Source of the DNA: Lysinibacillus contaminans
GTDB lineage: Bacteria; Bacillota; Bacilli; Bacillales_A; Planococcaceae
Assembly (NCBI RefSeq): GCF_001278945.1
Contig: NZ_LGRV01000005.1
Coordinates: 124,001 to 188,000 of the forward strand
Length of the DNA: 64,000 bases
Direction of reading: 5' to 3'
The notes under the pieces were generated by a model. It was not told the DNA's origin, did not search any database, and saw only the letters and a program-made list of their open reading frames with translations. Numbering within the stretch: the stretch's first letter is position 1; every line of letters begins with the position of its first letter. Below are positions 3,284 through 24,350 of this stretch, piece by piece. Both the position numbers and the translations under genes were made by a program.

Positions 3284-3295
3284 TTGTTCATTCGT

Positions 3296-3336
3296 ATAAA
3301 AACCTGCGTAGATATTGCATCTATTCAGGTTTTTAT
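3296..3336 (+). terminator. rho-independent terminator of the peptide transporter
   Basis: ATAAAAACCTG pairs with CAGGTTTTTAT around an inner AGAT/ATCT stem. The A- and T-rich ends make it usable on both strands. Confidence 0.75.
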
Positions 3337-3436
3337 ACATTATGTAGCTTATTTTCTATAGGGAAAAATAAGTTTTTGTATAGAAAAAGAATATTTTTCG
3401 TTATAATATTCTTAATATTATGTTAACGGAGGCATA

Positions 3437-3581
3437 ATGAAAACAACATTGGATAAGTTGAAGCCAAGAAGGTTGGGATTTTTCTTAGTTAGTAGTATTT
3501 CAAGAAGTACGTAGGTGTGTAGTAGAGGTGGAGATTACGCATTATTCATATGGGCCTGTGGTTTTCCGTATGTATGAGTAA
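3437..3581 (+). pseudogene. decayed FeoA-like ferrous iron transport protein relic
   Basis: An AACGGAGG ribosome binding site precedes an ATG whose frame begins MKTTLDKLKPRRLGF and stops after 23 codons. In another frame just downstream, EVEITHYSYGPVVFRMYE ends in TAA at 3579-3581. FeoA proteins usually open with a short LxxLKPG segment and end in an SH3-like stretch of the form VEVxxxxPxGDPxxFRVxG. The two pieces fit the two ends of one FeoA with the middle deleted and shifted in frame. No feoB follows. The interpretation is inference from short matches. Confidence 0.4.
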
Positions 3582-3657
3582 CTGTTCCTTATGAAGGTTT
3601 ATATAAAGCTAAGTGAATGGCATTAATTAAAGATAGTTAAGAGGAGGCGTCGGTATT

Positions 3658-4482
3658 ATGTTGGAACAAGTGCGTATAAAGAAATTGACGACATCAAGTG
3701 AACTTGGTGAAGTGCAACGTTTAAATGCAGAAATTTGGGGAAGTCAGGCAATACCTTCGCATCAATTACTTGCTACTGTGCATAATGGTGGTCTTATACT
3801 GGGGGCGTATTTAGAAGAGCGCCTTATTGGCTTTAATTATTGCTTTGTTGGTTTTAATGAAGGACAAATACACCTACATTCCCATTTGATTGGCGTTGAA
3901 AAATCATATCGTGAACGAGGAATTGGTGAACTACTAAAGCATGCACAACAGGAGTATGCGAAAGAAAACAATTTCAAACTTATTCGATGGTTATTCGATC
4001 CATTAGAGTCGCGTATGGCAAATTTATCTTTTTCCAAGCTGAATACAATCAGTCATCACTATGAAAATGACTATTATGGGCCATTAGAGGATGATTTCAA
4101 CGAGGGGTTACCATCTGATCGTATAGTTGTGGAGTGGTGGATTGAACGTAATCATGTAGATGACTGTTTAGATGAGTTAGAGGAAGATGCGGAAGAAGTT
4201 GTACCGTGGTCTTTAACAGTTGCGGGATTACCAGTGCTTGATACGGAAGGGACATTTAAAACAAATCAGGCTTTTTATAAAGATGCCTATTTACTTGCTA
4301 TTCCTCAACATTTACAAAAAATGAAGGTGGAGAGTCCAAAACTAGCAGAAGACTGGCGCTATAAAATCCGCACGATTTTAACGACATTATTTGAACAAGG
4401 ATATGCAATAGCACGTGTAAAAAAACATGATGAATATGTTCATTTTTATCTGTTAGTCAGACGCTCTTTATTAGCCTTATAA
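3658..4482 (+). CDS. GNAT acyltransferase paired with an N-acylamino acid racemase
   Basis: A 274-residue protein with a GNAT fold in its first half (LIGVEKSYRERGIGELLKHAQQEYA is the acyl-CoA pyrophosphate loop and following helix) and a C-terminal extension. It resembles the predicted acetyltransferases of COG3375 that commonly sit beside MenC-like enolase-superfamily genes. GAGGAGGCG lies nine bases before the ATG. The next gene starts 21 bases downstream, so the two are probably co-transcribed. In Geobacillus such a pair works in N-succinylation and racemisation of amino acids, converting D- to L-forms; that is a plausible role here but the substrate is inferred. A link to menaquinone synthesis is the alternative. 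Confidence 0.8.
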   Translation: MLEQVRIKKLTTSSELGEVQRLNAEIWGSQAIPSHQLLATVHNGGLILGAYLEERLIGFNYCFVGFNEGQIHLHSHLIGVEKSYRERGIGELLKHAQQEYAKENNFKLIRWLFDPLESRMANLSFSKLNTISHHYENDYYGPLEDDFNEGLPSDRIVVEWWIERNHVDDCLDELEEDAEEVVPWSLTVAGLPVLDTEGTFKTNQAFYKDAYLLAIPQHLQKMKVESPKLAEDWRYKIRTILTTLFEQGYAIARVKKHDEYVHFYLLVRRSLLAL

Positions 4483-4503
4483 TAGGTGTGAGGAGTGAAC
4501 GGT

Positions 4504-5610
4504 GTGAGGATAGAGGAAATTACGATAAGACATTTGAAAATGGCGATGAAAGCCCCATTTAAAACAAGCTTTGGCACAATCCACGAGAAAGAATTATTAC
4601 TTTTAGAAGTTAAGGATGTAGCTGGTACGATTGGGTGGGGTGAAACGGTTGCTTTTGTGGCACCGTGGTATACTGAGGAGACGCTAAAAACATCCTGGCA
4701 TATGCTAGAGGACTTTTTAATGCCAACCTTGTTACATAAAGAGATAGCACATCCTGATGAGGTCAGTAAGCTATTTGCCCCTATTCGTCGAAACTGTATG
4801 GCCAAAGCTTCGATTGAAGGAGCCGTGTGGGATATTTATGCGCAACAAACGAATCAGTCTCTTGCTCAAGCATTAGGGGGAAATAAAAACCTAATTGAGG
4901 TAGGAGTTAGTGTGGGTATTCAACCTTCAGTCGGAAAATTAATAGAATTAATAAAAAGTTATGTACAAATGGGCTATAAACGTGTAAAAGTGAAAATAAA
5001 ACCAGGTTATGACATTGAAGTAATTCGAGCGATTCGGACTGAATTTCGAGATTTACCGTTAATGGCGGATGCGAACTCAGCATATACATTAGGGGATATC
5101 GATATTTTACAGCAGCTGGATGCATTTGACTTACTAATGATTGAACAGCCACTTGCAGCAGATGATATAGTCGATCATGCAAAGTTGCAAAAACAACTTA
5201 AAACACCTATATGCTTAGACGAAAGCATCACCTCTCTAGAAGATGCACGAAAAGCAATCGAGCTTGGTAGTTGTGGTGTCATCAATGTGAAAATCGGACG
5301 TGTAGGGGGCTTAACCGAAGCTAGAAACATTCATGATTATTGTAGAGAAAAAGGAATTCCTGTCTGGTGCGGAGGTATGTTAGAGGCAGGGATTGGACGA
5401 GCACATAATGTAGCGTTAACTTCACTCGCTAATTTCGTATTACCAGGAGACACAGCAGGTTCCGACCATTATTGGTATGAGGACATTATTCAACCAGAAG
5501 TCATCGTGGAAGATGGTTTTATCCGCGTTCCACAGGCTATTGGCATTGGTTATACGCCTAATATAGACGTAATCGAAAAATTGACAATCACCAAGAAGGT
5601 CTATAAATAA
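4504..5610 (+). CDS. menC: o-succinylbenzoate synthase / N-acylamino acid racemase (MenC-type enolase superfamily)
   Basis: A 368-residue muconate-lactonising subgroup enolase with every expected catalytic element: the KVKIKPG lysine pair, metal ligands in [14 protein letters not shown] and CLDESI, and the second lysine in [11 protein letters not shown]. These enzymes dehydrate SHCHC to o-succinylbenzoate in menaquinone synthesis and often also racemise N-acylamino acids. The neighbouring acyltransferase favours the racemase role, and no other men gene is in the window. GTG at 4504 is chosen over GTG at 4495 because AGGAG at 4491-4495 then has normal spacing. It forms the middle of a three-gene operon ending at the hairpin at 6683-6728. 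Confidence 0.88.
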
Positions 5611-5626
5611 GCGGGGAGAGAAGAAA

Positions 5627-6679
5627 TTGAAGAAGAGTTTACAAATCGGTGGTGCTTTTGTCGGCATTATCGTCGGTGCGGGATTTGCGTCAGGGCAGGA
5701 AATCATACAGTATTTTACTAGCTATGGCTATATGGGAATTGTCGGTGCACTCATTGCAACATTAGGATTTGCTTTTGTTGGAATGTGTATTGCGCAAATT
5801 AGCTCGAGGCTTGGGACAACATCACATAAAGATTTGATTTATCAAATTTCTGGTAAATATATTGGCTTTGTTGTGGATTATTTACTATCATTCTTCTTAT
5901 TTGGTGTTGCGGTTATTATGTTTGCGGGAGCGGGTTCAACGTTTAAGCAGATGTTTGGCCTACCAGTATGGGTAGGTAGTTTGTTTATGATTATCCTGAC
6001 AATATTAACAGTGATGATGAACGTTAAAAGTATCATCAACTTAATTGCAATGGTTACCCCGTACTTACTAGCCATTGTCATGGTCATAGCAGTATATTCA
6101 ATAGCAACCATGGACTTATCGTTTGCTGAACAAGTAGTTATTGCTGAGCAGCAATCTCAAGTTGCATCGAACTGGTGGGTTGCAGCATTGTTGTATGTAT
6201 CATTTAATATCGGAGTCTGTTTCTCCATGCTAACAGTTGTGAGTGGATCAATTCGTAACGAAAAAGTTGCAGGGATGGGCGGTATTATAGGAGGACTTTT
6301 ACTAGGGGTATTGATGCTACTTATTAATCTATCAATGCTTGCAAAAATGGATACGATCGCAGGTTTAGATATTCCTATGCTGCAACTAGCAAATGAAATC
6401 AATCCGGTAGTCGGTATTTTAATGTCCATTGCGTTACTTGGTATGATTTATAATACGGCTGTAGGGATGTTTTATTCGTTCACAGTGCGTTTCTTTAAAC
6501 CATCCAAACCGAGTTTTAAAGTGGCTGTTATATTCATTGGAATCTTAGGTTTTGTTGCAAGTTTAGTAGGCTTTACGGAACTTGTTTCGAAAGTATATGC
6601 TGCGATGGGATATATCGGCTTTATTTTAGTCGCATCCATTGTCTTTGCGTGGTTCCGAGGAATTCGTAAGCCAGTATAA
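5627..6679 (+). CDS. YkvI-family membrane protein, putative transporter
   Basis: A 350-residue protein with about ten hydrophobic helices, beginning QIGGAFVGIIVGAGFASGQEI, the typical opening of the YkvI family (COG3949), which is distantly related to amino acid/solute symporters. The start is TTG, preceded by GGGGAGAG. It lies 16 bases after the racemase gene and is therefore probably the last gene of the acyltransferase-racemase operon. That position hints at transport of an amino acid or N-acylated amino acid, but no substrate is known for the family, so this is inference. Confidence 0.8.
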   Translation: MKKSLQIGGAFVGIIVGAGFASGQEIIQYFTSYGYMGIVGALIATLGFAFVGMCIAQISSRLGTTSHKDLIYQISGKYIGFVVDYLLSFFLFGVAVIMFAGAGSTFKQMFGLPVWVGSLFMIILTILTVMMNVKSIINLIAMVTPYLLAIVMVIAVYSIATMDLSFAEQVVIAEQQSQVASNWWVAALLYVSFNIGVCFSMLTVVSGSIRNEKVAGMGGIIGGLLLGVLMLLINLSMLAKMDTIAGLDIPMLQLANEINPVVGILMSIALLGMIYNTAVGMFYSFTVRFFKPSKPSFKVAVIFIGILGFVASLVGFTELVSKVYAAMGYIGFILVASIVFAWFRGIRKPV

Positions 6680-6682
6680 TTG

Positions 6683-6728
6683 AAAAGGTGATTGAGAAGA
6701 GGGGGAACCTAATTCTCAATTACCTTTT
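6683..6728 (+). terminator. terminator of the acyltransferase-racemase-YkvI operon
   Basis: A 16-base inverted repeat (AAAAGGTGATTGAGAA / TTCTCAATTACCTTTT, one mismatch) followed by a T-rich stretch. Confidence 0.8.
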
Positions 6729-6838
6729 TATTTTTATGAAAAATGAATAAAACTAGTGAAAAGTTTATGCATTAAAAATCGTCGTAAATGTAAATATATC
6801 GTTAATTAATCTGAAATTTCAATTATTGTTAAATAAAT

Positions 6839-6853
6839 CGAGAATAATTCTCA
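6839..6853 (+). promoter_or_regulatory. upstream Fur box
   Basis: CGAGAATAATTCTCA matches the 7-1-7 Fur consensus TGATAATnATTATCA at most positions and is nearly a perfect palindrome. It lies just upstream of the -35 hexamer of the iron operon. Confidence 0.65.
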
Positions 6854-6861
6854 ATTGGAGG

Positions 6862-6890
6862 TTGACTGATAATGCAAACATGCTTATAAT
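6862..6890 (+). promoter_or_regulatory. sigma-A promoter of the siderophore-uptake operon
   Basis: TTGACT at 6862-6867 and TATAAT at 6885-6890 with a 17-base spacer, close to consensus. It is bracketed by Fur boxes, so it should be strong and iron-repressed. Confidence 0.8.
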
Positions 6891-6905
6891 GAGAATCGTG
6901 AGTAA

Positions 6906-6920
6906 TGATAATCATTTTCA
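6906..6920 (+). promoter_or_regulatory. downstream Fur box
   Basis: TGATAATCATTTTCA matches the 7-1-7 Fur consensus at 13 of 15 positions. It covers the region just after the transcription start, where bound Fur would block initiation or early elongation. Confidence 0.78.
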
Positions 6921-6965
6921 CTAGAAAATCACTTACGAACAAAAATGAATCTACCGGGGATTACA

Positions 6966-7916
6966 ATGAAAATAAGATATCTTTTAACAGCAACTGTTGT
7001 GTTGTCTATTGTGTCACTGTTTATCGGTGTAGTAGATATTAAACCGAGTGACCTATTAGACTTCGAATCAGAGGAAACTAGATTATTTTTAATTAGTCGT
7101 ATACCGAGACTTGTGGCAATTTTGTTAGCAGGAGCAGGTATGAGTATAGCTGGTCTAATTATGCAAAGCTTAAGTAGGAATAAGTTCGTGTCACCAACAA
7201 CAGCAGGAACTTTAGACGCAACGAAATTAGGAGTATTAATTTCGATGATGTTTTTCACAAATGTCACGTATGTCCAAAAAATTTCCTTCGCTTTCATATT
7301 TGCTTTAGCCGGCACATTTGTATTTATGCAAATATTAAATCGAATAAAGTTTAAAGATGCGATTTTTATACCGCTTATTGGCTTAATGTTCGGGAATATT
7401 TTATCGTCGATTACGACATTCTTTGCCTATAAGGCAGATATTATTCAAAACATTTCTGCATGGTTACAAGGAGATTTTTCATTATTGATGAAAGGTCGTT
7501 ACGAGCTTTTATACATAAGTGTACCCGTGCTGATAATAGCTTACATTTATGCGAACCGCTTCACAGTTGCCGGAATGGGTGAGGATTTTGCAAAAAATCT
7601 TGGACTTTCTTATAAGTTTGTTGTGAATTTAGGTTTAGTATTAGTAGCACTTGTGTCAACGACAGTGGTGTTAACAGTTGGAGTGATTCCATTCCTTGGT
7701 TTAATCATTCCGAATATTGTTTCGTTGTTCAAAGGCGACAATCTAGCGAAGACATTGCCGCATACTGCATTACTGGGCATGTCATTCCTATTATTCTGTG
7801 ATATTTTGGGCAGGGTGCTGATTTTCCCTTATGAAATTCCGATTAGCATGACCGTTGGTGTCATCGGAAGTGCGATCTTCCTATTTATGTTGTTTAGGGG
7901 GAAAGCATATGCGTAA
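6966..7916 (+). CDS. yclN: siderophore ABC transporter permease, first subunit (YclN-like)
   Basis: A 316-residue FecCD/BtuC-type permease, the same length as Bacillus subtilis YclN, with about nine helices and the family motif RIPRLVAILLAGAGMSIAGLIMQ. With the next three genes it forms an iron-siderophore importer; the subtilis ortholog carries petrobactin. ATG at 6966 is preferred over ATG at 6945 because GGGGA lies just before it and the shorter form starts with a normal membrane-helix N-terminus. The operon starts at the Fur-regulated promoter and the next gene overlaps this one by eight bases. The exact siderophore is inferred from order and similarity. Confidence 0.9.
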   Translation: MKIRYLLTATVVLSIVSLFIGVVDIKPSDLLDFESEETRLFLISRIPRLVAILLAGAGMSIAGLIMQSLSRNKFVSPTTAGTLDATKLGVLISMMFFTNVTYVQKISFAFIFALAGTFVFMQILNRIKFKDAIFIPLIGLMFGNILSSITTFFAYKADIIQNISAWLQGDFSLLMKGRYELLYISVPVLIIAYIYANRFTVAGMGEDFAKNLGLSYKFVVNLGLVLVALVSTTVVLTVGVIPFLGLIIPNIVSLFKGDNLAKTLPHTALLGMSFLLFCDILGRVLIFPYEIPISMTVGVIGSAIFLFMLFRGKAYA

Positions 7917-8862
7917 TCGTACGAAAATGTTAATTTTAGTGGGACTTGCCATAGTGTTTGTATTACTTTATGTGTTTTATGAGTTAAATGGCAACTATCA
8001 TTACGCGTTCCCGCGCCGCCTTATAAAGGTAGCTGCGATGGCATTAACGGGTATGGCAATTGCTTACTCGACGGTTGTTTTCCAAACGATTACACATAAC
8101 CGTATATTAACGCCAAGTGTAATGGGTCTCGATGCTTTATATATGATGGTTCAAACAATTATCTATTTCTTCTTTGGATCAATGTCGATTTTTGTCATTA
8201 ATGCACATTTCAATTTCTTATTAGCTGTTACAGCAATGATTGTCTTCGCATTAGTGTTCTACCAAGTATTATTCAAAGAAGGTAAACGTCCGATTTACTT
8301 CCTACTGCTAGTAGGTATGATTGTCGGAACATTCTTAGGAAGTGTTACAACGTTCTTCCAGGTGTTGATTGATCCGAATGAGTTTTTAAGTTTACAAAGT
8401 AAAATGTTTGCAAGCTTCAACAATGTAAATTCAGATTTAGTGTGGCTAGCAGGTATTGTGATTTTGATTGTCTTTGTTTATGGTTGGCGTCACCTTAGCC
8501 AATTAGACGTTATGTCTCTTGGTCGTGATACTGCAATTAACCTAGGCGTTCCTTATGATAAACTTGTTAAGCGCATGCTTGTATTATCTTCGGTATTAAT
8601 TGCCGTTTCTACAGCGCTAGTTGGGCCGATTACGTTCTTCGGTTTAATCGTTGCGAATTTGTCGTATCAGTTTTTCAAAACGTACAAGCACTCAGTTTTA
8701 ATCGCAGGTTCTTGTGTGATGAGTATTGTTGCTTTAATCGGTGGTCAGTGGATGGTCGAACGGGTATTTAACTTCGACACAACACTCAGCGTTATTATAA
8801 ACTTTGTAGGTGGCGTATACTTCATCTACTTATTACTGAAGGAAAGTAGGTCAGCGGGATGA
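7909..8862 (+). CDS. yclO: siderophore ABC transporter permease, second subunit (YclO-like)
   Basis: A 317-residue FecCD-type permease that pairs with the preceding one to form the heterodimeric channel. It shows the permease motif TGMAIAYSTVVFQTITHNR and the cytoplasmic coupling region TAINLGVPYDKLVKRMLVL. The frame opens at 7855, but AGGGGG before the ATG at 7909 and the overlap with the previous stop indicate translational coupling from 7909. The following ATPase gene starts inside its last codons (ATGA overlap at 8859-8862). Confidence 0.9.
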   Translation: MRNRTKMLILVGLAIVFVLLYVFYELNGNYHYAFPRRLIKVAAMALTGMAIAYSTVVFQTITHNRILTPSVMGLDALYMMVQTIIYFFFGSMSIFVINAHFNFLLAVTAMIVFALVFYQVLFKEGKRPIYFLLLVGMIVGTFLGSVTTFFQVLIDPNEFLSLQSKMFASFNNVNSDLVWLAGIVILIVFVYGWRHLSQLDVMSLGRDTAINLGVPYDKLVKRMLVLSSVLIAVSTALVGPITFFGLIVANLSYQFFKTYKHSVLIAGSCVMSIVALIGGQWMVERVFNFDTTLSVIINFVGGVYFIYLLLKESRSAG

Positions 8863-9620
8863 TCCAAGTAAAAGAAATTTCTAAGTTTTTTGGGAAAAAG
8901 CCGGTGATTCAAGATGTTAGTGTCGAAGTAGCGACAGGGAAAATTACGTCCTTTATCGGACCGAATGGCGCTGGTAAATCAACACTTCTTTCAATGGTAA
9001 GTCGTTTACTTAACGCAGACACTGGGGAAGTATTACTCGATAAAGCGGATGTGCGTCGTTGGAAATCAGACGATTTTGCAAAGCGCGTCTCGATTTTAAA
9101 GCAGTCGAACTATATGAATGTGCGCCTAACAATACGCGAACTTGTATCGTTTGGTCGTTTCCCTTATTCAAAAGGGAATTTAAAGCCAGAGGATGAGGTA
9201 AAGGTAGACGAGGCACTTCAATATATGAATTTAGATGATCTTCAACATAATTATCTAGATGAATTATCAGGCGGTCAGCGTCAACGTGCCTTTATCGCAA
9301 TGGTAATCGCGCAAGACACAGACTATATCCTACTCGATGAGCCACTCAACAATTTAGACATGAAGCACTCAGTGCAAATCATGAAAATTTTGCGCAAGTT
9401 GGTGGATGAGCTAGGGAAAACGGTAATCATTGTATTACATGACATTAACTTTGCGTCTGTATACTCTGATAACATTGTTGCACTGAAAAATGGACGTGTT
9501 GTCAAAGACGGTCCAACGAATGACATCATTAACTCTGATGCGCTTAAGGAAATCTATGATATGGATATCCCTGTTCAAGAACAGAATGGTTGCCGCATCT
9601 GCGTATATTTTAATTCATAA
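8859..9620 (+). CDS. yclP: siderophore ABC transporter ATP-binding protein (YclP-like)
   Basis: A 253-residue ABC ATPase with Walker A GPNGAGKST, signature LSGGQRQRAFIAM, Walker B YILLDEP and the switch histidine in VLHDINFA. Sequence and position match the FepC/YclP class that powers iron-chelate uptake. Translation is coupled to the permease by an ATGA overlap. The gene ends 19 bases before the binding-protein gene. Confidence 0.92.
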   Translation: MIQVKEISKFFGKKPVIQDVSVEVATGKITSFIGPNGAGKSTLLSMVSRLLNADTGEVLLDKADVRRWKSDDFAKRVSILKQSNYMNVRLTIRELVSFGRFPYSKGNLKPEDEVKVDEALQYMNLDDLQHNYLDELSGGQRQRAFIAMVIAQDTDYILLDEPLNNLDMKHSVQIMKILRKLVDELGKTVIIVLHDINFASVYSDNIVALKNGRVVKDGPTNDIINSDALKEIYDMDIPVQEQNGCRICVYFNS

Positions 9621-9639
9621 AAAGAGGAGCAATAAAACA

Positions 9640-10647
9640 ATGAAAAATTGGAAATTACTTACGGTTTTAATGGCGATGATGCTATTAGTATTAGCAGCTT
9701 GTAGTTCAAAGGACGAAGCAGAAACTGACAAAGGTGATTCAGCTGAAAACAAACCAGCAGAAGAATCAACAGGGGATGCAACAGCTTATCCACTTACAAT
9801 TCCAGGTAGCACATCTGGTGAAAATACATTTGCTGATGTAACGTTAGAAAAACAACCAGAAAATGTTGTTGTATTTGACTATGGTTTCCTTGATACGTTA
9901 GACGCTCTTGGGGTTGAAGTTGCAGGTGTAGCACAAAAATCAGTTCCTGAATATTTAAGCAAATACACTGACACAACTTACATGAACGTTGGGTCTTTAA
10001 AAGAGCCAGATTTTGAAGCATTATCTTCTATGAACCCAGACATTATCTTCATCTCTGGTCGTCAAGCATCTGCTTATGAAGAATTATCAAAAATTGCACC
10101 AACTGTTTTCGTAGGTGTAGATAACACTAACTTTATTGAATCGTTCAAAGTAAATACAGAGTTAGCTGGTAAAATTTTCGGTAAAGAAAAAGAGGCTGCT
10201 GATGCATTTGCTGCATACGAAGCAAAAGTAGAAGAAATTAAAGCAAAAACAGCTACTTCTGAAGAAAAAGCTTTAATCGTTTTAGGCAATGAAGGATCAT
10301 TATCTGCTTACGGTCCTGGTTCACGTTTCGGTGTAATCCATGATGTATTTGGTGTAAAACCTGCAGACGAGAACATTGAAGCTTCTACACATGGTGCAAA
10401 TGCATCATTTGAATATGTACGTGATACAAACCCTGATATTTTATTTGTAGTTGACCGCGATGCTGCTGTAAATTCTGAAGGTGAATCAGGTACAAAAGCT
10501 GCAATTGAAAATGAAATCGTAGGCGCTACTAATGCTGCGAAAAACGGTAAAATTTTCTACCTAGATCCACAATATTGGTACCTATCAGGTGGTGGTATTA
10601 CATCTGAAACTGCAAAAGCTGATGATGTTTTAAAAGCTTTTAACTAA
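9640..10647 (+). CDS. yclQ: siderophore-binding lipoprotein (YclQ-like)
   Basis: A 335-residue substrate-binding protein. A signal peptide ends in the lipobox LVLAAC, giving a lipid-anchored Cys near residue 21. A Glu/Asp/Thr-rich linker follows, then a two-lobed periplasmic-binding fold of the FhuD/YclQ class (ENVVVFDYGFLDTLDALGVEVAGV). The real start is ATG 9640, ten bases after AGAGGAGC; the frame is open further upstream but overlaps the ATPase gene. It captures the iron-siderophore outside the membrane for the YclNOP channel. Petrobactin is the likely ligand by family resemblance, not proven. Confidence 0.9.
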   Translation: MKNWKLLTVLMAMMLLVLAACSSKDEAETDKGDSAENKPAEESTGDATAYPLTIPGSTSGENTFADVTLEKQPENVVVFDYGFLDTLDALGVEVAGVAQKSVPEYLSKYTDTTYMNVGSLKEPDFEALSSMNPDIIFISGRQASAYEELSKIAPTVFVGVDNTNFIESFKVNTELAGKIFGKEKEAADAFAAYEAKVEEIKAKTATSEEKALIVLGNEGSLSAYGPGSRFGVIHDVFGVKPADENIEASTHGANASFEYVRDTNPDILFVVDRDAAVNSEGESGTKAAIENEIVGATNAAKNGKIFYLDPQYWYLSGGGITSETAKADDVLKAFN

Positions 10648-10648
10648 T

Positions 10649-10963
10649 ATGTTTGTACAAATTAAACGCATGGTCGTAACAGAAGGTAATTCGGACATAA
10701 TCGTTGAGCGCTTTGGTGCGAAAAAGGATGGTCCATCATTACTGGAGCAACAACCAGGCTACATTGATAAGCAAATATTAGTCAAAAAAGTACGTCGTGG
10801 TGACGAAGAAGTGCTTATTATGGTTCGTTGGGAATCAGAAGAAGCATGGAAAAACTGGGAGAAGAGCCCCGAGCATATCGCTGGTCACAAGGCAAATGCC
10901 GGTAAGCCAAAGCCAGATTTTATCGTAGAATCAGGACAAGATGTATATTATGTAAAAGCATAA
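10649..10963 (+). CDS. hmoA: haem-degrading monooxygenase HmoA (IsdG/ABM fold)
   Basis: A 104-residue antibiotic-biosynthesis-monooxygenase-fold protein very close to Bacillus HmoA: VRRGDEEVLIMVRWESEEAW and then EHIAGHKANAGKPKPDF, which carries the Trp and haem-ligand His region expected of the family. It opens the haem ring to release iron. It starts one base after the stop of the lipoprotein gene and ends at the operon terminator, so it is the fifth gene of the Fur-controlled unit. Linking haem degradation with siderophore uptake makes this an iron-scavenging operon. Confidence 0.88.
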   Translation: MFVQIKRMVVTEGNSDIIVERFGAKKDGPSLLEQQPGYIDKQILVKKVRRGDEEVLIMVRWESEEAWKNWEKSPEHIAGHKANAGKPKPDFIVESGQDVYYVKA

Positions 10964-10966
10964 GAA

Positions 10967-11010
10967 AAGGCTGTTTCGTAAGTAGAGAAATCTACTTATG
11001 AGACAGCCTT
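10967..11010 (+). terminator. terminator of the iron operon
   Basis: AAGGCTGT...TAAGTAGA pairs with TCTACTTA...ACAGCCTT around a 4-base loop, followed by ATTTTA. A long, nearly perfect stem. Confidence 0.85.
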
Positions 11011-11251
11011 ATTTTAATGGTTAAATTTAGCCGTTATTTTTCAGAAATGTATAATTTGGATTTACGACATATTTATAAATAAGTTCAAAAAAAACAGCAA
11101 AATTTTGTTTTATGCCTATAGTGACGCATCTTTAAATATTTGTCGTATGTAGTTTTAAGGATTTTGAAGATGGCATTAATAAGGGATTTTAGAATTACCT
11201 AAAAATTATCTTATATTCAAAAATGTGGATATGTTACACTTGGTGTGGGAA

Positions 11252-11279
11252 TAAAAGGTAGTATTCTAAGTGTAGATAT
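11252..11279 (+). promoter_or_regulatory. sigma-D-like promoter of the chemoreceptor gene
   Basis: TAAA at 11252-11255 and GTAGATAT at 11272-11279 with a 16-base spacer resemble the Bacillus sigma-D (motility) consensus TAAA-N15-GCCGATAT, with 6 of 8 matches in the -10. It ends 26 bases before the TTG start. Confidence 0.5.
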
Positions 11280-11305
11280 ATTTATAGAAAGATGAGGGGG
11301 ATAAC

Positions 11306-13288
11306 TTGAAAACTAAATCTTTATTAGTAAAAATCATGTTCTTTATACTGTCTGTAACGTTGTTAACAACCGCTTCAATGGGATGGTTAAATTACAAAAC
11401 ATCTAAAGATATCATTATTAACTCATTACAAGATAATGCTGAAAGTCAAGTGACTATACATGCCTCACAGCTAGGAACTTGGCTTCAAACAAGAAAATCT
11501 GAGATAGAGGTAATGGCAAACATCGATTTAGTTCGTTTTGGGCAGCAGGAAGATATTTTACCGTATTTTGCTGAAGAAAGAGAACGAATGGATGGTACAT
11601 ATTCTTCAATTAGTTTAGGGGATACTGAAGGTAATCTAACATTTGATTCTGGGATAGCCATTCAGATTGGCAGTGAAACTACGTTCTCAGATGTTATGGC
11701 GGGAACATCAATTATTTCGAATCCTTTCCCAGACAAAGCAGACTTAAAAAATTTGATTATTTCATTCGAAGTACCTGTATATGATGAAAATAAAAAAGTT
11801 AAAGGGCTAGTTAGTGGAGCTTCTCCTATTAATAAAGTGTTTGCGGAAACAACAGATTTTAAAGTAGGAGAAACAGATACAGTGTATGTTATTCAAGGTG
11901 ATGGATTAATCATTCACCATCCAGATGAAACAAAGGTTTTACAAGAAAACTTACTTGAATCGAACAGTCAAAAAATGAAAAAACTTGCATCAGAAATGAT
12001 TGAAAAAGGACAAGGTTTTTCGGAAATCGAGATCAATGGCGAAGATCGAATGCTCTTTTATTCAACTGTACCAAATACAAATTGGATTATGGCTGTGGAT
12101 GTTCCTTTAAAAGAATTTACTTCAAAGCTAACGCCTTTATTAATTATCACTATTATATCTGGAATTGCAGCGCTTCTTCTTAACGGAATCATTCTATTTT
12201 TACTTTTAAGAAGAATGACGAATCGAATTCGTAAAGCAGCTACTATGGCGGAAGAGATTGCAGAAGGTCAATTATCGTTTGAAAAGATTGAAGATTCCAA
12301 CAACGATGAAATAAGTCATTTAGCCAGAGCAGTAAATCAAATGGCTAACAATTTAAGAGATTTACTCATGCACGTCAATCAAGTAACCGAACAAGTAACA
12401 TTAGCTTCTTCTCATTTCATCGAAGGTGCTTGGCGTGCTTCAGAAACTTCAGGAGCAATTACAAGTTCAGCCCAGGAAGTATCATCTGCAACAGCACTCC
12501 AATTACAAGCAATTCAGCAAAGTACGGAAGCTATAGACCAAATGGCAATCGGGATACAGCGTGTTGCATCATCTTCTTTTGATGTCTTTGAGGCATCCAC
12601 AAGGACTGAACAAGAAGCAGTTCAAGGAAATCAAAGCATTTCGACAGTTGTTAAACAAATGGATAGTATTTACCAATCTGTTCAAAAATCAAGTAATGTC
12701 GTTCAATTATTAGCAAACCGTTCAAAAGAAATAGGGGAGATTTCAGGCATGATTACAAGTATCTCAGATCAAACCAATTTGTTAGCATTAAACGCAGCGA
12801 TTGAATCCGCTAGAGCTGGAGAACACGGAAAGGGATTTGCAGTGGTTGCAGAAGAAGTACGCAAGCTAGCAGAGCAATCCAAAAACTCTGCTGACAAAAT
12901 CTCACATTTAATTGATGAGATACAAATAAATACAGAAGAAGCTGTCCAAGTGATGTCTGCCGGCGCCCAAGATGTCCAAGACGGAACGGAACTCGTCAAT
13001 CATGCTGGAGAAATGTTTAATAACATTCTTATAGCCATCAAACAAGTTTCCAATCAAATTCAAGAGGTGTCATCATCATCAGAACAACTATCAGCCTCAA
13101 CAGAAGAAATAAATGCGTCATCGGTAGAAATGCTTGAGATCGCTCATAAGTCCACATATAACGCAAATACAGTTACTACACAAGCTAGTTCCCAACTAGC
13201 TGTGATTGAGGACATGAAGAGCTCTACAGAGGCTTTAAATAATATGGTTGTTGAATTACAGAAAGCTATGAGAAAATTTACTTTTTAA
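11306..13288 (+). CDS. methyl-accepting chemotaxis protein with extracellular dCache-type sensor
   Basis: A 660-residue transducer. A membrane helix at about residues 8-28 is followed by an extracellular Cache-type ligand domain to about 270 ([17 protein letters not shown] is typical), a second helix at about 275-300, a HAMP domain ([19 protein letters not shown]) and the cytoplasmic coiled-coil with the invariant tip [20 protein letters not shown] near residue 490. It signals to CheA/CheW. TTG 11306 has a strong GAGGGGGATAAC leader. The sensed ligand is unknown. Together with the sigma-D-like promoter this suggests a motile cell, although no flagellar genes lie in the window. Confidence 0.93.
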
Positions 13289-15041: not shown

Positions 15042-15314
15042 GTATCATTTCTCCTCTCTGTTTAGTTTTTCTATCGGTGGAAGTTTATCTTTTTCAACAA
15101 CCTTCACTTCTTTTTAAACTGATTTTATCTGCTATAGCAAATTCACTTACCCTCGAGTTGATTTAACCTATTGTCACCAACACCGATATTACAAAGACAA
15201 TTTCCCTTTATATGTGCTTCAAGATGTTGTTAACATTTTTATGGAAGAAGTCTATTATTTATTACCAATTATTAGTATTATGGTAAGTAATATAACTTAT
15301 GGAGGTGAGGACTA

Positions 15315-16217
15315 TTGCTTGACTTACACAATCGCATTAATGAGTCATTAGATACACTGATTGAAAAAGAGGCGCTTATTGGATCCGAATTGCGTGGCAT
15401 GCTGAAAGGCTTTAAGGAAGAGAAAACAGACGTAGGCTATTCCTTTGGGAAGCTATGTATTATTCACTATGAAGCATTTTCGGAACACTGTAATGAGGAC
15501 ATTTATAAAGTAGCAGCAGCCATTGAGCTCCTCATTTTGTCTTTCGATATCATCGATGATCTACAGGATCAGGATGCTGAATATAGTTGGAGTAGAACGC
15601 CTGATTTATCGTTGAATACTGCAGTGGCCATGCTTGTTATGGCGTCGAAGATTATACGTGAAAGTAATTTTGAACATAAAGGTTTAGCTGTGCAGTTATT
15701 AGAGAAGTATGCACTGCTCAGCATTAATGGTCAGCAGCTAGATTTGTTAAATTACTGTCGTGATGAGCAATCTTATTTACGAATGATTGAACAGAAATCG
15801 GGTTCACTGACAGCGATGAGTTGTTTGATAGGAGAAACCCTTGCTAAAGGGGAAGTCTCTACACAAGTTGAAGAGTATTCAAAGTACATAGGTATCATAC
15901 AACAGATTAAGAATGATATTCAGGATTTAAAAAAATGGGACAGGAAAAATGACTTATTGAACAAAAAGTACACATTACCCATAATTTTCTTACTTTTGAC
16001 AGAAAATAGTGTTTCAAAATCTGTAAAAGACTATTACAATGAAGATATAGTTACATTTATGGATAATTTTGTTATAGAAAGAGAGTTAACAAGTAGTGGC
16101 GCTATACGTTATGCATTGGCTTTGAAAAATTTGTATAAACATAAAGCACTACAGTTTCTTGAAGATGTGACTATGGATAATGGGAGTAAGGATTTTATAA
16201 AAAAACTAATGAAATGA
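15315..16217 (+). CDS. comQ: ComQ, isoprenyl transferase that modifies the ComX pheromone
   Basis: A 300-residue trans-prenyltransferase-fold protein, the same size as Bacillus subtilis ComQ (about 299). The first Asp-rich motif, DIIDDLQDQD, places DDxxD at residues 81-85; the second region is NDIQDLKKWDRKNDLLNKKY. In ComQ proteins it binds the prenyl diphosphate and attaches the prenyl group to a Trp of pre-ComX, and is needed for its processing and export. The start is TTG 15315, directly after GGAGGTGAGG. comX begins 9 bases downstream. The call rests on the fold plus the complete cassette behind it. Confidence 0.9.
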   Translation: MLDLHNRINESLDTLIEKEALIGSELRGMLKGFKEEKTDVGYSFGKLCIIHYEAFSEHCNEDIYKVAAAIELLILSFDIIDDLQDQDAEYSWSRTPDLSLNTAVAMLVMASKIIRESNFEHKGLAVQLLEKYALLSINGQQLDLLNYCRDEQSYLRMIEQKSGSLTAMSCLIGETLAKGEVSTQVEEYSKYIGIIQQIKNDIQDLKKWDRKNDLLNKKYTLPIIFLLLTENSVSKSVKDYYNEDIVTFMDNFVIERELTSSGAIRYALALKNLYKHKALQFLEDVTMDNGSKDFIKKLMK

Positions 16218-16226
16218 GGAGATTGT

Positions 16227-16385
16227 ATGATTAAAGCGATTCAGTATTTAGAGCAAAATCCAATGTTAGTAGAGTTATTAAGAGAGAAAAAAGTTTCATT
16301 AATCGGTGTTAATGATTTAGAGGTTCAGGCAATCGTAGAAGCATTTGATGATGAATTACGTTTAGAAAATCCACTTTGGAATTAA
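16227..16385 (+). CDS. comX: ComX pheromone precursor, 52 residues
   Basis: A small frame starting MIKAIQYLEQNPMLVELL, with AGGAGA six bases before the ATG, lying exactly between comQ and comP. Known ComX precursors are 50-75 residues, diverge strongly, and share only a short helical leader and a Trp close to the C-terminus that is prenylated. Here the chain ends ENPLWN, so Trp51 is next to last and is the predicted modification site. Cleavage would release a peptide of perhaps 5-10 residues. The frame's last ten bases overlap the comP start. Identity rests on position, length and Trp; modification and mature ends are inferred. Confidence 0.88.
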   Translation: MIKAIQYLEQNPMLVELLREKKVSLIGVNDLEVQAIVEAFDDELRLENPLWN

Positions 16386-18691
16386 ATTCAATAAAAAGAA
16401 ACAGATTTTTTCTTGCTATAGCTGTCTATCTAACAGTAGGTCTGTATTTATTTTATATTGTATATAGCACACCTCTTTTAGGCATTTATTTAAAGGAAGA
16501 TAAAGGGCAGTGGCAAATAACAGATCCGTACTATAAAGATTGGGCAGCTAAGCACCAAATAGCAGCTGGAGATATCGTTTTAACAATAGATGGTATTCAG
16601 ACAGAGCTTGTTCCTAATATAATGTATGATTTTGTGATTCGTGCAGCTAATGATTTAACAATAAAAAAGCCAGATGGACAAATCCTTGATGTACAAATAA
16701 ATCCTCTAGACATCCCACAGCAATTTTACTCAGTGTTGGTAGTTCCTTTTTGTTACTATTTGCTGACACTGCTGATTGTTTTATATTTATATTTAACACA
16801 AAAAAATACAACACTTTTAAATATACTCATTCTTTTTATGCTAACCGTCTCGTTAGCATATATTAGTATAGGTTCATCTGGTAGATTGAATAGTGTTGGC
16901 ATTATAGTAAATCGAAGTAGTATGTTACTTTGTCTCGTACTATTACTCCGTTTTTTGAAGAGTTATTTTTCGTTTTTAAATATAAATTGGTTATTCTTTA
17001 ACAATATAAAAGTACTTTATATAATGCCACTATTGGCGTTTTTTCTAAGCGTTCTCGGTATCGTGTATCCATCAACTCATAACCTATATTCAAATATTAT
17101 CTTGGGGTTATTTTTGTTTCTGCTTATGATGATTCTTATCATTTTAATAGTTAGCTATTTTAAGTATAGAGCACCACAAATAAAGGTTTTATTGATTAGC
17201 ATAATCATTCCATTCTTACCTTTTTTATTCCTCTATGCGTTACCAGAAATATTATTCCATAGATTTATACTTTCTGCCGATTTATGTTCATTATTTTTAA
17301 TGTTAATCCCATATAGTTTTATCTTTACACAGTTAACAGAAAGAATGTTTGATATGGAATACTTGATAACACGTCTACGCTATTATATTAGCTTCGCATT
17401 TGTTTTTTCAGTTTGGTTATTAGTAGGTCTCTATTGGCTTGCAAATCACATATTAACTGTAGTAGAAATGGTTGAGATATTTTTTTTCGCTTTTATCTCA
17501 TTGACTGTGCTTTTTTTCATAAAGGAAAAACTCGATTATCGACAACGAAAAGTTCTTTTTTCGACAAAGGGAGACTATATCCATCAACTTTACACGACAA
17601 TAGATAAAATAGGAAAAGCCTTCAAAATAGAGGATTTACTAGAGAAGTTCTCACGTGAGGTTGCTCTCCATCTTGAACTTAACCACGTAGATGTTTTAAC
17701 TTATGACTATCAAAGCCAACAACTCATATCTAAAAACGAGTCAATCGATTCACTACATAATCATGTAGACTCAGCAATTGTTGAGTTATTACAGCTAGGT
17801 GAAATAAAGAAAATAGATACTTGCTATCTGGCTTTTATCCATCAAGACGCTCATTATAAAAGAATTTTAGTGTTAGGTCATAACAATTCCATTAATTTAA
17901 AAGAAGAAGAACTATTATGGCTTGAATTATTACTTTTATATTTAAATAACTTTATTGATAACACAAAAATGATTGAAGGACTCATAGAAGAATTAAAGCA
18001 AATGAAACAATCAGATGGAAATCAGCTACCTTGGCTCAATAAATTATTATGGCTACGTTTTGAAGAAGAAAAATATCAATTGGCTCAAGAGCTCCATGAT
18101 ACAAATTTACAAGAACAGCTGCATATAGCAAGAGAAGTAGATGTCTTGATTCATACTAAGGATTCTACTGATATTCAATCGAAGCTTGTAAAGGTCCATG
18201 AACAAATGATTGCATCCATGCATGATTTAAGGTCTTATTGTGAGAATTTAAAACCGCCTCTATTAGATACATTGGGGCTTAACGCTGCTCTTGAAAAGCT
18301 TTTACAAAAAGTGATCAGTAGGGCTGATTTCGTATTAAATCATTCAATTGATCGCTTATATTTAGAAGACGAACGCTTGAATCTAATGATTTATCGATTG
18401 TTTCAGGAGTTATTAAACAATGCACTAAAGCATTCTTACGCTACTTCTGTAGAAATTCATCTAATAGAAAGGATGGATGGGTTTGAAATTACTTACTCTG
18501 ATAATGGTGTAGGGTGCGATTTGAATGACATTATGCAATCTGATTCAATGGGCATAAAAGGTATACAAGAGCGGGTTAAGGCCTTTAATGGACAATTTCA
18601 CATTAATTCTTGTATTCATCAAGGGATGTCCATTCAAATTACAGTAAGTGAAGGAAGTGACACACTTGATTACGATGCTCATAGTGGATGA
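16376..18691 (+). CDS. comP: ComP, membrane histidine kinase for the ComX pheromone
   Basis: A 771-residue kinase with ComP architecture. An N-terminal helix (about 11-31) precedes an extracellular PDZ-like segment containing IAAGDIVLTIDGI, then roughly eight to nine helices at about 115-380 form the sensor. A cytoplasmic linker leads to a HisKA_3 domain with phospho-acceptor His574 in LAQELHDTNLQEQL, and to an ATPase with NNALKHS, DNGVG and MGIKGIQERV. It would phosphorylate ComA on sensing modified ComX. The start is TTG 16376 inside comX with no clear ribosome binding site, which points to translational coupling. It overlaps comA by about 26 bases. Confidence 0.92.
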   Translation: MELNSIKRNRFFLAIAVYLTVGLYLFYIVYSTPLLGIYLKEDKGQWQITDPYYKDWAAKHQIAAGDIVLTIDGIQTELVPNIMYDFVIRAANDLTIKKPDGQILDVQINPLDIPQQFYSVLVVPFCYYLLTLLIVLYLYLTQKNTTLLNILILFMLTVSLAYISIGSSGRLNSVGIIVNRSSMLLCLVLLLRFLKSYFSFLNINWLFFNNIKVLYIMPLLAFFLSVLGIVYPSTHNLYSNIILGLFLFLLMMILIILIVSYFKYRAPQIKVLLISIIIPFLPFLFLYALPEILFHRFILSADLCSLFLMLIPYSFIFTQLTERMFDMEYLITRLRYYISFAFVFSVWLLVGLYWLANHILTVVEMVEIFFFAFISLTVLFFIKEKLDYRQRKVLFSTKGDYIHQLYTTIDKIGKAFKIEDLLEKFSREVALHLELNHVDVLTYDYQSQQLISKNESIDSLHNHVDSAIVELLQLGEIKKIDTCYLAFIHQDAHYKRILVLGHNNSINLKEEELLWLELLLLYLNNFIDNTKMIEGLIEELKQMKQSDGNQLPWLNKLLWLRFEEEKYQLAQELHDTNLQEQLHIAREVDVLIHTKDSTDIQSKLVKVHEQMIASMHDLRSYCENLKPPLLDTLGLNAALEKLLQKVISRADFVLNHSIDRLYLEDERLNLMIYRLFQELLNNALKHSYATSVEIHLIERMDGFEITYSDNGVGCDLNDIMQSDSMGIKGIQERVKAFNGQFHINSCIHQGMSIQITVSEGSDTLDYDAHSG

Positions 18692-19289
18692 TCATCCTAT
18701 CGTTTTAGAAGGAACAAAAAATCTGTTTCAAGAAATTGCTGATATGGTAGTTGATACAGAAAGCGATGCTACATGTGTGTTGCAAAAAGTGAAGAAAACA
18801 CCTTTTGATATCTATTTGATTGATATTAACATGCCGTTACAAAATGGGATTGTTTTAGCTAGAAATATTAAAGTACTACAGTCAAATGCTGCAATCATTC
18901 TTTATACAGGAGATGACATCGTAGATTATTACCCACTCATTTTAGAGAGGAAAATCCAAGGCATTCTAGCTAAAACGGCATCTAAGGAGCAAATCATTCG
19001 AACAATTCGTTCCATTAGCCACGGTGAACTTGTTCTTCCAATTAACTTCCTTGATTTCTTGGAGAGTAAATGTTATCCCCAAGAATTACAAAAAAAACTT
19101 AAGCTAAATGCTAAAGAAAAACAGATTTTAAGCTTAATTGCAGATGGTGATACTAATCATGCAATAGCAGTAAAACTCAATGTGACACAACGTACAGTTG
19201 AACGCTATTTAACACAGTTGTTTACACTATTAAATGTGGAATCTCGCACTGAAGCCGTTAATTTCGCAAAAGAAAGGCACTTACTTTAG
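18666..19289 (+). CDS. comA: ComA, NarL/LuxR-type response regulator of the quorum-sensing cassette
   Basis: A receiver domain (LIVDDHPIVLEG, phospho-acceptor Asp in YLIDINMP at residue 53 from this start, lysine in LAKTAS) joined to a C-terminal LuxR-type helix-turn-helix (KEKQILSLIADGDTNHAIAVKLNVTQRTVERYL). Total about 207 residues. TTG 18666 is preferred because AAGGAAG lies 8-9 bases upstream; GTG 18648 and ATG 18675 are in-frame alternatives. It is the output of the ComX-ComP signal and ends before a strong hairpin. The targets cannot be read here; I saw no clear TTGCGG-N4-CCGCAA box in the window. Confidence 0.9.
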   Translation: MITMLIVDDHPIVLEGTKNLFQEIADMVVDTESDATCVLQKVKKTPFDIYLIDINMPLQNGIVLARNIKVLQSNAAIILYTGDDIVDYYPLILERKIQGILAKTASKEQIIRTIRSISHGELVLPINFLDFLESKCYPQELQKKLKLNAKEKQILSLIADGDTNHAIAVKLNVTQRTVERYLTQLFTLLNVESRTEAVNFAKERHLL

Positions 19290-19363: not shown

Positions 19364-19603
19364 AGCGTTTTAATGAGACTATTTCATGTAGTCTTTATCT
19401 ACACAATACAAAAAACTTCTCTTCATCCGGCCATTAAAGGATAATGGAATTATATCCCTTCTTAAATAAAAATTGATGACACACTATTAATTTTTCATAT
19501 GAATCCTTCAAAAAATAATCACTACGCCAAAATATATGAAGCCCCCCATATAGAACCTTCTCAAAATAAACTCTCGTTGATTCAGTAGCAACTTCAAGGC
19601 ACA

Positions 19604-19689
19604 CCGACAAGGAAAATGTCGGACACCGACAGGGAAAATGTCGGACACCGACAGGGAAAATGTCGGTATACCGACAGAAAAAATGTCAG
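19604..19689 (+). repeat. four tandem CCGACA-N7-TGTCGG hairpins
   Basis: Four consecutive units at 19604-19622, 19626-19644, 19648-19666 and 19671-19689, each a 6-base stem around a 7-base purine loop (AGGAAAA, GGGAAAA, GGGAAAA, GAAAAAA). The period is 22-23 bases and linkers are ACA or TATA. In the last unit the right arm is TGTCAG. Nothing else of this kind is seen in the window. It lies 315 bases after comA in otherwise gene-free DNA. Function unknown. Confidence 0.9.
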
Positions 19690-24106: not shown

Positions 24107-24350
24107 TTCAGTGGAAATCCCCTACTTCCATTAGTCGGGGAATGTATGCAAGTTTAACATTCGATTCAGTGGGTGTCCAAACGTCGACTGAATCCTGTTT
24201 AAGCTTCCGGCGGATGTCACCGATTTTGAAAGGTTAAGAAGGATGTTAGCCTAAGTACGTAGCATCCATGCGACAACGGCTAGCTGAACTGCATCATGCA
24301 GCCCTAAGCACAATTCAAAATTTGGACGCAATTACGCCAGGACGTAATTG
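24107..24350 (+). repeat. modular dispersed repeat, copy 2, with inserted loop
   Basis: Shares with copy 1 the block GGCGGATGTCAC, ATTTTGAA, AAGCACAATTCAAAAT, GGACGCAAT and the terminal stem, here CAATTACG / CGTAATTG (24329-24350). About 75 bases are inserted in the loop of the ATTTTGAA/TTCAAAAT hairpin (24231-24305), itself holding GGATG...CATCC and GCATCATGC foldbacks. The upstream module (ATTCAGTGGAA..., 24107 on) has diverged. It ends ten bases before the thrB terminator. Confidence 0.75.

What the first reader, a model, noticed from the sequence alone, without database searches (positions are those of the whole stretch)
15315..19289. Complete comQXPA quorum-sensing cassette outside the Bacillus subtilis group
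Four genes in the classical order encode a DDxxD prenyltransferase, a 52-residue peptide with a C-terminal Trp, a multi-helix HisKA_3 kinase and a LuxR-type regulator. They overlap or nearly touch, so the system looks intact. The rest of the window looks like Lysinibacillus/Solibacillus, where this system is little studied, and no srfA or deg target is near.
Basis: partly seen in the sequence, partly recalled or inferred. Interest (0 to 1): 0.8.

Follow-up and report, generated by a model that had tools for sequence, protein, structure and literature searches.

The report
Lysinibacillus comQXPA peptide quorum-sensing cassette
The window holds an intact four-gene cell-to-cell signalling system known from Bacillus subtilis and already reported in this genus; less expected is that most related species carry extra signal-receptor pairs that seem to share its single maturation enzyme and regulator.

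Summary
Confirmed: comQ, comX, comP and comA lie intact and in order at 15315-19289 of a Lysinibacillus-group genome. ComX passes its Pfam cut-off (35.1 vs 25 bits). ComQ separates from the genome's own HepT and FPP synthase; ComP separates from three other kinases of the genome. The Trp is penultimate, not terminal. The kind is not new: a 2014 census (PMC4008528) reports comQXPA in Lysinibacillus and the same overlaps in B. isronensis. The cassette is core to the genus: comQ in 32 of 32 genomes.

Not found in print: 26 of 32 genomes carry at least 33 satellite comX-comP pairs, none with comQ or comA within about 5 kb. In L. piscis the main locus keeps only comQ and comA; the only comXP found is a satellite. 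In four pairs of related genomes the satellite kinase halves are 98-100% identical but the sensor halves 60-68%, with different ComX tails. Rap (PF18801), B. subtilis' other ComA input, was found in 0 of 32. No satellite was found in the window genome. That satellites use this ComQ and ComA is inferred.

The parts
15301..15309 (+). Shine-Dalgarno sequence GGAGGTGAG of comQ
   Evidence: sequence
15315..16217 (+). comQ, 300-aa polyprenyl-synthetase family protein, DDLQD and NDIQD motifs, TTG start
   Evidence: PF00348 72.9 bits; apart from the genome's HepT and FPP synthase; orthologue in 32 of 32 genomes of the genus
16216..16221 (+). Shine-Dalgarno sequence GAGGAG of comX, overlapping the comQ stop codon
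   Evidence: sequence
16227..16385 (+). comX, 52-aa pheromone precursor ending ELRLENPLWN, Trp penultimate
   Evidence: PF05952 35.1 bits, cut-off 25; 64 ComX compared
16376..18691 (+). comP, 771-aa sensor histidine kinase: about 10 membrane helices, PDZ-like loop at about residues 33-108, LHDTNLQ box with His574, HATPase
   Evidence: Pfam, His574, hydropathy, AlphaFold2 model mean pLDDT 71.9, trees
18666..19289 (+). comA, LuxR/NarL-type response regulator, TTG start inferred from an orthologue
   Evidence: PF00072 and PF00196; start
19601..19689 (.). four 22-bp near-palindromic repeats downstream of comA, scored as terminator-like on the - strand; role unknown, perhaps not part of the system

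Best explanation
The locus is a working comQXPA quorum-sensing cassette, the conserved core copy ('hub') of a system found throughout Lysinibacillus. By analogy with B. subtilis, ComQ prenylates the Trp near the C-terminus of the 52-residue ComX precursor; a short C-terminal prenyl-peptide leaves the cell and at high density binds the polytopic sensor half of ComP; ComP autophosphorylates His574 and passes the phosphate to ComA, which acts on target genes not identified here. Overlapping frames suggest coupled translation of ComX, ComP and ComA. Shown here: gene order, domains, motifs, phylogeny, conservation, and coupled variation of ComX tail and ComP sensor across the genus. Inferred: prenylation, export, binding, phosphotransfer, targets. 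In most relatives the same ComQ and ComA probably also serve one to five satellite comX-comP pairs elsewhere in the genome; none was found in the window genome.
For: Pfam hits for all four proteins. ComQ orthologue in 32 of 32 genomes. In the 31 relatives' loci, comQ and comA in 31 (one comA only 132 aa long) and comX and comP in 30 (absent in L. piscis). ComQ apart from HepT and FPP synthase, SH-aLRT 98. ComP-like proteins apart from three other kinases of the genome, bootstrap/SH-aLRT 98/97. Among 31 hub loci, ComX-tail identity tracks ComP-sensor identity after correction for the kinase half: partial Mantel 0.65, 0 of 2000 permutations as high, as expected of a signal and its receptor. LHDxxLQ box in 64 of 64 proteins: 31 hub ComP, 29 satellite ComP, 4 ComP3. 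The AlphaFold2 model has ten membrane-type helices and a beta-rich loop between the first two, the topology that PMC9620489 (passages) describes for B. amyloliquefaciens ComP.
Against: No biochemistry. HisKA_3 is just under its Pfam cut-off. The B. subtilis ComA box (recalled as TTGCGG-N4-CCGCAA) is not enriched in the genome: 2 sites per strand with one mismatch against 3 per strand for the reversed control, so the regulon is unknown. No B. subtilis ComQ or ComP was in the trees; the outgroups sit on very long branches. ComA matches solved NarL, DesR and others better than the B. subtilis ComA fragments 2krf and 3ulq. Model confidence is modest (pTM 0.46; residues 547-579, around His574, under pLDDT 50).
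Confidence: 0.9

Rival explanations
1. The four genes are intact but use another chemistry or signal: ComQ makes a free prenyl product or is a relic, and ComP senses something else.
For: Prenylation cannot be tested by sequence. NCBIfam gives ComQ only sub-cut-off hits, to HepT and other synthases.
Against: HepT and FPP synthase are encoded elsewhere in the genome. Trp close to the C-terminus in 64 of 64 ComX. Tail-sensor coupling.
Confidence: 0.05
2. The satellite comXP pairs of the genus do not work with the hub: they use the separate comP3-comA3 locus, another comQ, or are decaying copies.
For: A ComP3-like kinase occurs in 32 of 32 genomes (my count from the rows; 7 of them placed in one clade), with a comA-like gene beside it in 5 of 5 loci where I looked (L111; L172, L181, L182, L183). 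In 4 of 33 satellites comP is split or broken.
Against: 29 of 33 satellite comPs have at least 700 aa. In the phosphoacceptor helix, hub ComP is 81% identical to satellite ComP but 68% to ComP3 (hub to hub 94%). L. piscis keeps hub comQ and comA without hub comXP. No comQ or comA match within about 5 kb of 33 of 33 satellites.
Confidence: 0.3
3. The satellites act as brakes rather than extra accelerators: an unliganded satellite ComP dephosphorylates ComA, giving an AND gate, as Rap-Phr does in B. subtilis.
For: All 64 proteins keep the Gln of LHDxxLQ, which in HisKA_3-type kinases is linked to phosphatase activity (recalled). PMC4771773 (abstract and passages) argues that repressive, not activating, extra systems accumulate. 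Rap (PF18801) found in 0 of 32 genomes.
Against: In B. subtilis with a second, engineered ComP-ComX the two signals acted additively, OR-like (PMC4771773). No activity data here.
Confidence: 0.35

Closest known systems
comQXPA of the Bacillus subtilis group
   Same: Gene order, domains, short ComX precursor with a Trp near its end, polytopic ComP, LuxR-type ComA, ComX tail and ComP sensor that vary together
   Different: Genus Lysinibacillus; comX/comP and comP/comA frames overlap; Trp penultimate; B. subtilis-type ComA boxes not enriched; Rap (PF18801) not found in 32 genomes
Non-B. subtilis-like comQXPA clade of the 2014 census (PMC4008528)
   Same: The census names Lysinibacillus in this clade, and B. 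isronensis B3W22 has the same 3-residue ComP extension into comX plus a comP/comA overlap
   Different: As described in the passages read, the census sought four-gene loci, so comXP pairs without comQ and comA would not be listed; it gives two loci for each of two Lysinibacillus species
Engineered ExtraCom strain of B. subtilis (PMC4771773)
   Same: Two ComX-ComP pairs feeding one ComA
   Different: Engineered, and its second set brought its own comQ; the authors write that they know of no bacterium with multiple activation-based systems in parallel
Rap-Phr systems of B. subtilis
   Same: Several dispersed signal-receptor pairs converging on ComA
   Different: Rap receptors repress ComA until bound by Phr (PMC4771773); satellites encode ComP-type membrane kinases and ComX peptides

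Membership tests
comQXPA quorum-sensing system | Four adjacent genes in the order Q-X-P-A on one strand | tested here: met
comQXPA quorum-sensing system | ComQ: polyprenyl-synthetase family protein distinct from housekeeping synthases | tested here: met
   PF00348 72.9 bits; tree against HepT (L193) and FPP synthase (L194) of the same genome, SH-aLRT 98, long outgroup branches; a third PF00348 gene, L195, was not put in the tree
comQXPA quorum-sensing system | ComX: PF05952 precursor with Trp near the C-terminus | tested here: met
   35.1 bits against cut-off 25; 52 aa; Trp penultimate
comQXPA quorum-sensing system | ComP: multi-helix N-terminus with HisKA_3 and HATPase_c | tested here: met
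   HATPase_c over cut-off; HisKA_3 22.8 bits, under its cut-off of 24, E 1.4e-4; ten membrane-type helices; ComP clade 98/97 against three other kinases
comQXPA quorum-sensing system | ComA: receiver plus LuxR-type HTH | tested here: met
   the PDB comparison does not single out ComA
comQXPA quorum-sensing system | ComX tail and ComP sensor vary together (pherotypes) | tested here: met
   partial Mantel, 31 hub loci 0.65, 29 satellites 0.46, 0 of 2000 permutations as high in each
comQXPA quorum-sensing system | Trp of ComX is prenylated by ComQ and the peptide activates ComP | not testable with these tools
   needs mass spectrometry and reporters
comQXPA quorum-sensing system | ComA targets carry the B. 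subtilis ComA box (a trait of B. subtilis rather than of the family) | tested here: inconclusive
   box, recalled from memory, not enriched over control in an 86%-complete genome; the box may differ here
PDZ-bearing ComP as modelled in PMC9620489 | PDZ fold between membrane helices 1 and 2 | tested here: inconclusive
   PDZ_2 14.5 bits, cut-off 27; beta-rich fold at 33-108, pLDDT about 84; the first 50 rows of the whole-model search are headed by histidine-kinase entries and show no PDZ entry

The most novel reading that the evidence does not exclude
Lysinibacillus runs a hub-and-satellite quorum-sensing network: one core ComQ and ComA (the window's cassette type) serve one to six ComX-ComP channels. 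The satellite channel exchanges its sensor half and ComX tail between related species more than the hub does, and multiplies in some (five satellites in L. macroides, three of them with a full-length comP). It stands where B. subtilis has Rap-Phr, and would be a natural case of parallel kinase-based ComX channels, which published theory says should be selected against unless the unliganded extra receptors repress ComA.
Probability: 0.55. Interest if true: 0.75.

Novelty: new member of a known kind. Interest (0 to 1): 0.5.

Why it matters
The cassette itself extends a known system and mainly confirms a 2014 prediction. It matters as the core of a network. According to PMC4771773 each B. subtilis isolate has a single ComX-ComP but several Rap-Phr pairs, and extra activating pairs should be selected against. 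A genus in which 26 of 32 species genomes carry extra ComX-ComP pairs, and in which Rap was not detected, lets that argument be tested in nature: whether extra receptors activate or repress, whether one prenyltransferase serves several pheromones, and why the satellite channel keeps changing. L. piscis, with comQ-comA and comXP at separate places, is a natural split of the system.

Tried and rejected
Housekeeping prenyl synthase: rejected. Chance ORFs: rejected. B. subtilis ComA boxes as a guide to targets: not above control. A motif shared by hub and satellite promoters: none found by a simple count of short words and palindromes. The satellites share a promoter and leader of their own; its pattern, searched in 6 genomes with up to 3 mismatches, marks 8 of the 9 satellites of the three satellite-bearing genomes, plus one 3-mismatch site inside a hub comQ, with 2 hits in all for the reversed control. 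Window cassette as a hub-satellite chimera: its ComP sensor half is nearer to satellites (mean 60.4% against 56.3% to hubs) and its kinase half nearer to hubs (77.1% against 71.4%), but trees do not settle it: kinase tree of 64, outside both groups; sensor tree, unresolved, one hub clade not rejected, p-AU 0.414; 28-row full-length tree, sister of the satellites, 91; 30-row kinase tree, with two of three satellites, 80/79. ComP remnant at G000:C1:871626 as a dead satellite: best hit a satellite (46% over 71 residues), hub hits nearly as good, undecided. ComP3 as orthologue of the Metasolibacillus-type comXPA kinase: not supported. Phage-borne ComP: no match at E 1e-20. First scan of named genomes found nothing. 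Rows dropped: two loci gave no ComP to the tree (L200, L081), and only one outside kinase went in, so I repeated the test with three. Satellite ComPs under 700 aa (4 of 33) are not in the trees or the Mantel test. The leader fold used 22 of 33 leaders. The satellite count is a lower bound (PF05952 at E up to 0.01). The '26 of 33 in one group' is single linkage on any shared flanking gene family and may chain neighbouring sites.
Full report
OBSERVATION. Each hits the expected Pfam families; HisKA_3 is slightly under its cut-off. The Trp is penultimate (...ENPLWN).

WHAT IT IS. The window is G000:C4:124001-188000 of a 4.1-Mb assembly given as 86% complete. ComQ occurs in 32 of 32 genomes of the genus searched. 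In 31 relatives' loci comQ and comA are present in 31, comX and comP in 30. ComX occurs in 63 of 250 genomes of the family sample, 32 of them of this genus. ComQ separates from the genome's HepT and FPP synthase (SH-aLRT 98; names from NCBIfam cut-offs). ComP-like proteins separate from three other kinases of the genome (98/97).

MECHANISM. By analogy with B. subtilis (ComQ prenylates ComX, ComX activates ComP, ComP phosphorylates ComA; passages of PMC4008528 and PMC9620489). Support from this work: ComX tails vary together with ComP sensor halves after correction for the kinase half (31 hub loci, partial Mantel 0.65; 29 satellites, 0.46; 0 of 2000 permutations as high in each). The AlphaFold2 model (mean pLDDT 71.9, pTM 0.46, 18 sequences) has ten membrane-type helices and a beta-rich loop at 33-108; PMC9620489 describes ten helices and a PDZ-like loop, which may bind ComX, in B. 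amyloliquefaciens ComP. The PDB search is headed by DesK and VraS kinase structures. Targets are unknown: B. subtilis ComA boxes are not enriched. The genome has three ComK-family matches over the cut-off.

THE NETWORK AROUND IT. PF05952 hits away from comQ led to 33 satellite loci in 26 of 32 genomes. The six without are the window genome, G012, G020, G026, G027 and G029. All 33 hold comX and comP sequence, and none has a comQ- or comA-like match in the roughly 5 kb fetched on each side (tblastn, E up to 1e-4). 29 of 33 comPs have at least 700 aa; in the other four comP is split or broken. By shared flanking genes 26 satellites fall in one group, 8 of them with gcvPB in the fetched stretch; the other seven are in three genomes. 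Beside gcvPB the window genome has a gene of the family found downstream of several satellites, but no comX or comP. L. macroides has five satellites and six different ComX tails, hub included; three of the five satellite comPs are full length. No hub and satellite of one genome share a tail (0 of 32 pairs). Satellite ComPs form one side of a branch in the kinase tree (SH-aLRT 91) and in the sensor tree (81).

PHEROTYPE SWAPPING IN SATELLITES. Six satellite pairs have kinase halves at least 95% identical; their sensor halves are 60-73% identical and all have different tails. Among them, G002, G003 and G009 share 97.8-99.6% of the kinase half but 60-64% of the sensor half; G006 and G007 share 100% and 68%, while their hub ComPs are identical over the columns used for both trees. 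Over pairs with kinase identity of 93% or more, sensor identity averages 64.8% in 14 satellite pairs and 87.9% in 18 hub pairs. The hub also has low pairs (minimum 61%), so the contrast is of degree.

DO SATELLITES USE THE HUB? Inferred, for three reasons. They lack comQ and comA. Their phosphoacceptor helix resembles the hub's: 81% hub to satellite, 94% hub to hub, 68% hub to ComP3. In L. piscis the hub locus, with the usual downstream neighbours, holds comQ and comA side by side without comX or comP, and the only comXP found in that genome is a satellite. Against: a ComP3-like kinase occurs in 32 of 32 genomes (my count), with a comA-like gene adjacent in 5 of 5 loci looked at (L111; L172, L181, L182, L183); it could be the real partner or the reason why comA is kept. 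Rap (PF18801) is found in 0 of 32 genomes, with B. subtilis positive as control; other Rap models were not tried.

OTHER COM LOCI OF THE WINDOW GENOME. A second comQ-comP-comA set on G000:C9 has a candidate comX on the opposite strand (PF05952 14.1 bits, cut-off 25), the arrangement that PMC4008528 shows for L. fusiformis ZC1. It lies beside a subtilosin-A-like precursor (PF11420, E 8.8e-19) and an AlbA-like maturase (720 bits, cut-off 850), so a sactipeptide may be its target. A third locus is comP3-comA3 without a recognisable comX.

KNOWN OR NEW. PMC4008528 (part 2 of 4 of the text, and passages) already reports comQXPA in Lysinibacillus, two loci in each of two species, and the same overlaps in B. 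isronensis. I therefore file the window's cassette as a new member of a known kind. I found no report of comXP satellites in searches of the held library; these are listings, four of which (7, 36, 77, 78) show only part of the papers that matched, and I opened three papers in all. Subscription papers and preprints are not held. PMC4771773 (abstract and passages) says that each B. subtilis isolate has a single ComP-ComX and that its authors know of no bacterium with parallel activation-based systems; the satellites would bear on that if they prove active.

Noticed in passing
L064 (G000:C9:8000-18050), 2607-8845: Second comQ-comP-comA set with a candidate comX on the opposite strand, beside a subtilosin-A-like precursor and an AlbA-like radical SAM maturase.
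   Followed up: partly
L111 (G000:C1:1068000-1082000), 4614-7446: comP3-comA3 pair without a recognisable comX or comQ; a ComP3-like kinase is present in 32 of 32 genomes.
   Followed up: partly
L112 (G000:C1:866000-878000), 5636-5893: 85-aa remnant matching ComP residues of about 466-540, beside a regulator gene that looks sigma-54 type by my reading.
   Followed up: partly
Upstream of satellite comX genes, e.g. L066, L070, L074: Conserved promoter followed by a leader whose 5' end can pair with sequence upstream of the ribosome-binding site: 8-bp stem, 4 pairs with changes on both sides in 22 of the 33 leaders.
   Followed up: partly
   Followed up: no
L199 (L. fusiformis plasmid pMGMM7), 5980-7055: comQ and comX without any comP or comA match in the 12.9 kb fetched: a possible sender-only form.
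   Followed up: partly
CP065518.1 and CP031730.1: Two plasmids labelled Stenotrophomonas rhizophila carry a comQ 65.9% identical to the window's, the same figure as the L. fusiformis plasmid; possibly mislabelled or contaminated records.
   Followed up: no
L200 (Priestia megaterium plasmid), 5908-12768: comQ, comX, a sensor kinase and a response regulator directly followed by acpS, acyl carrier protein and amino acid-ACP ligase genes, a candidate target cluster.
   Followed up: no
window 24235-24302: Bacillaceae-1 RNA (RF01690), the only Rfam match over gathering score in the window.
   Followed up: no
window 19601-19689: Four 22-bp near-palindromic repeats downstream of comA.
   Followed up: no
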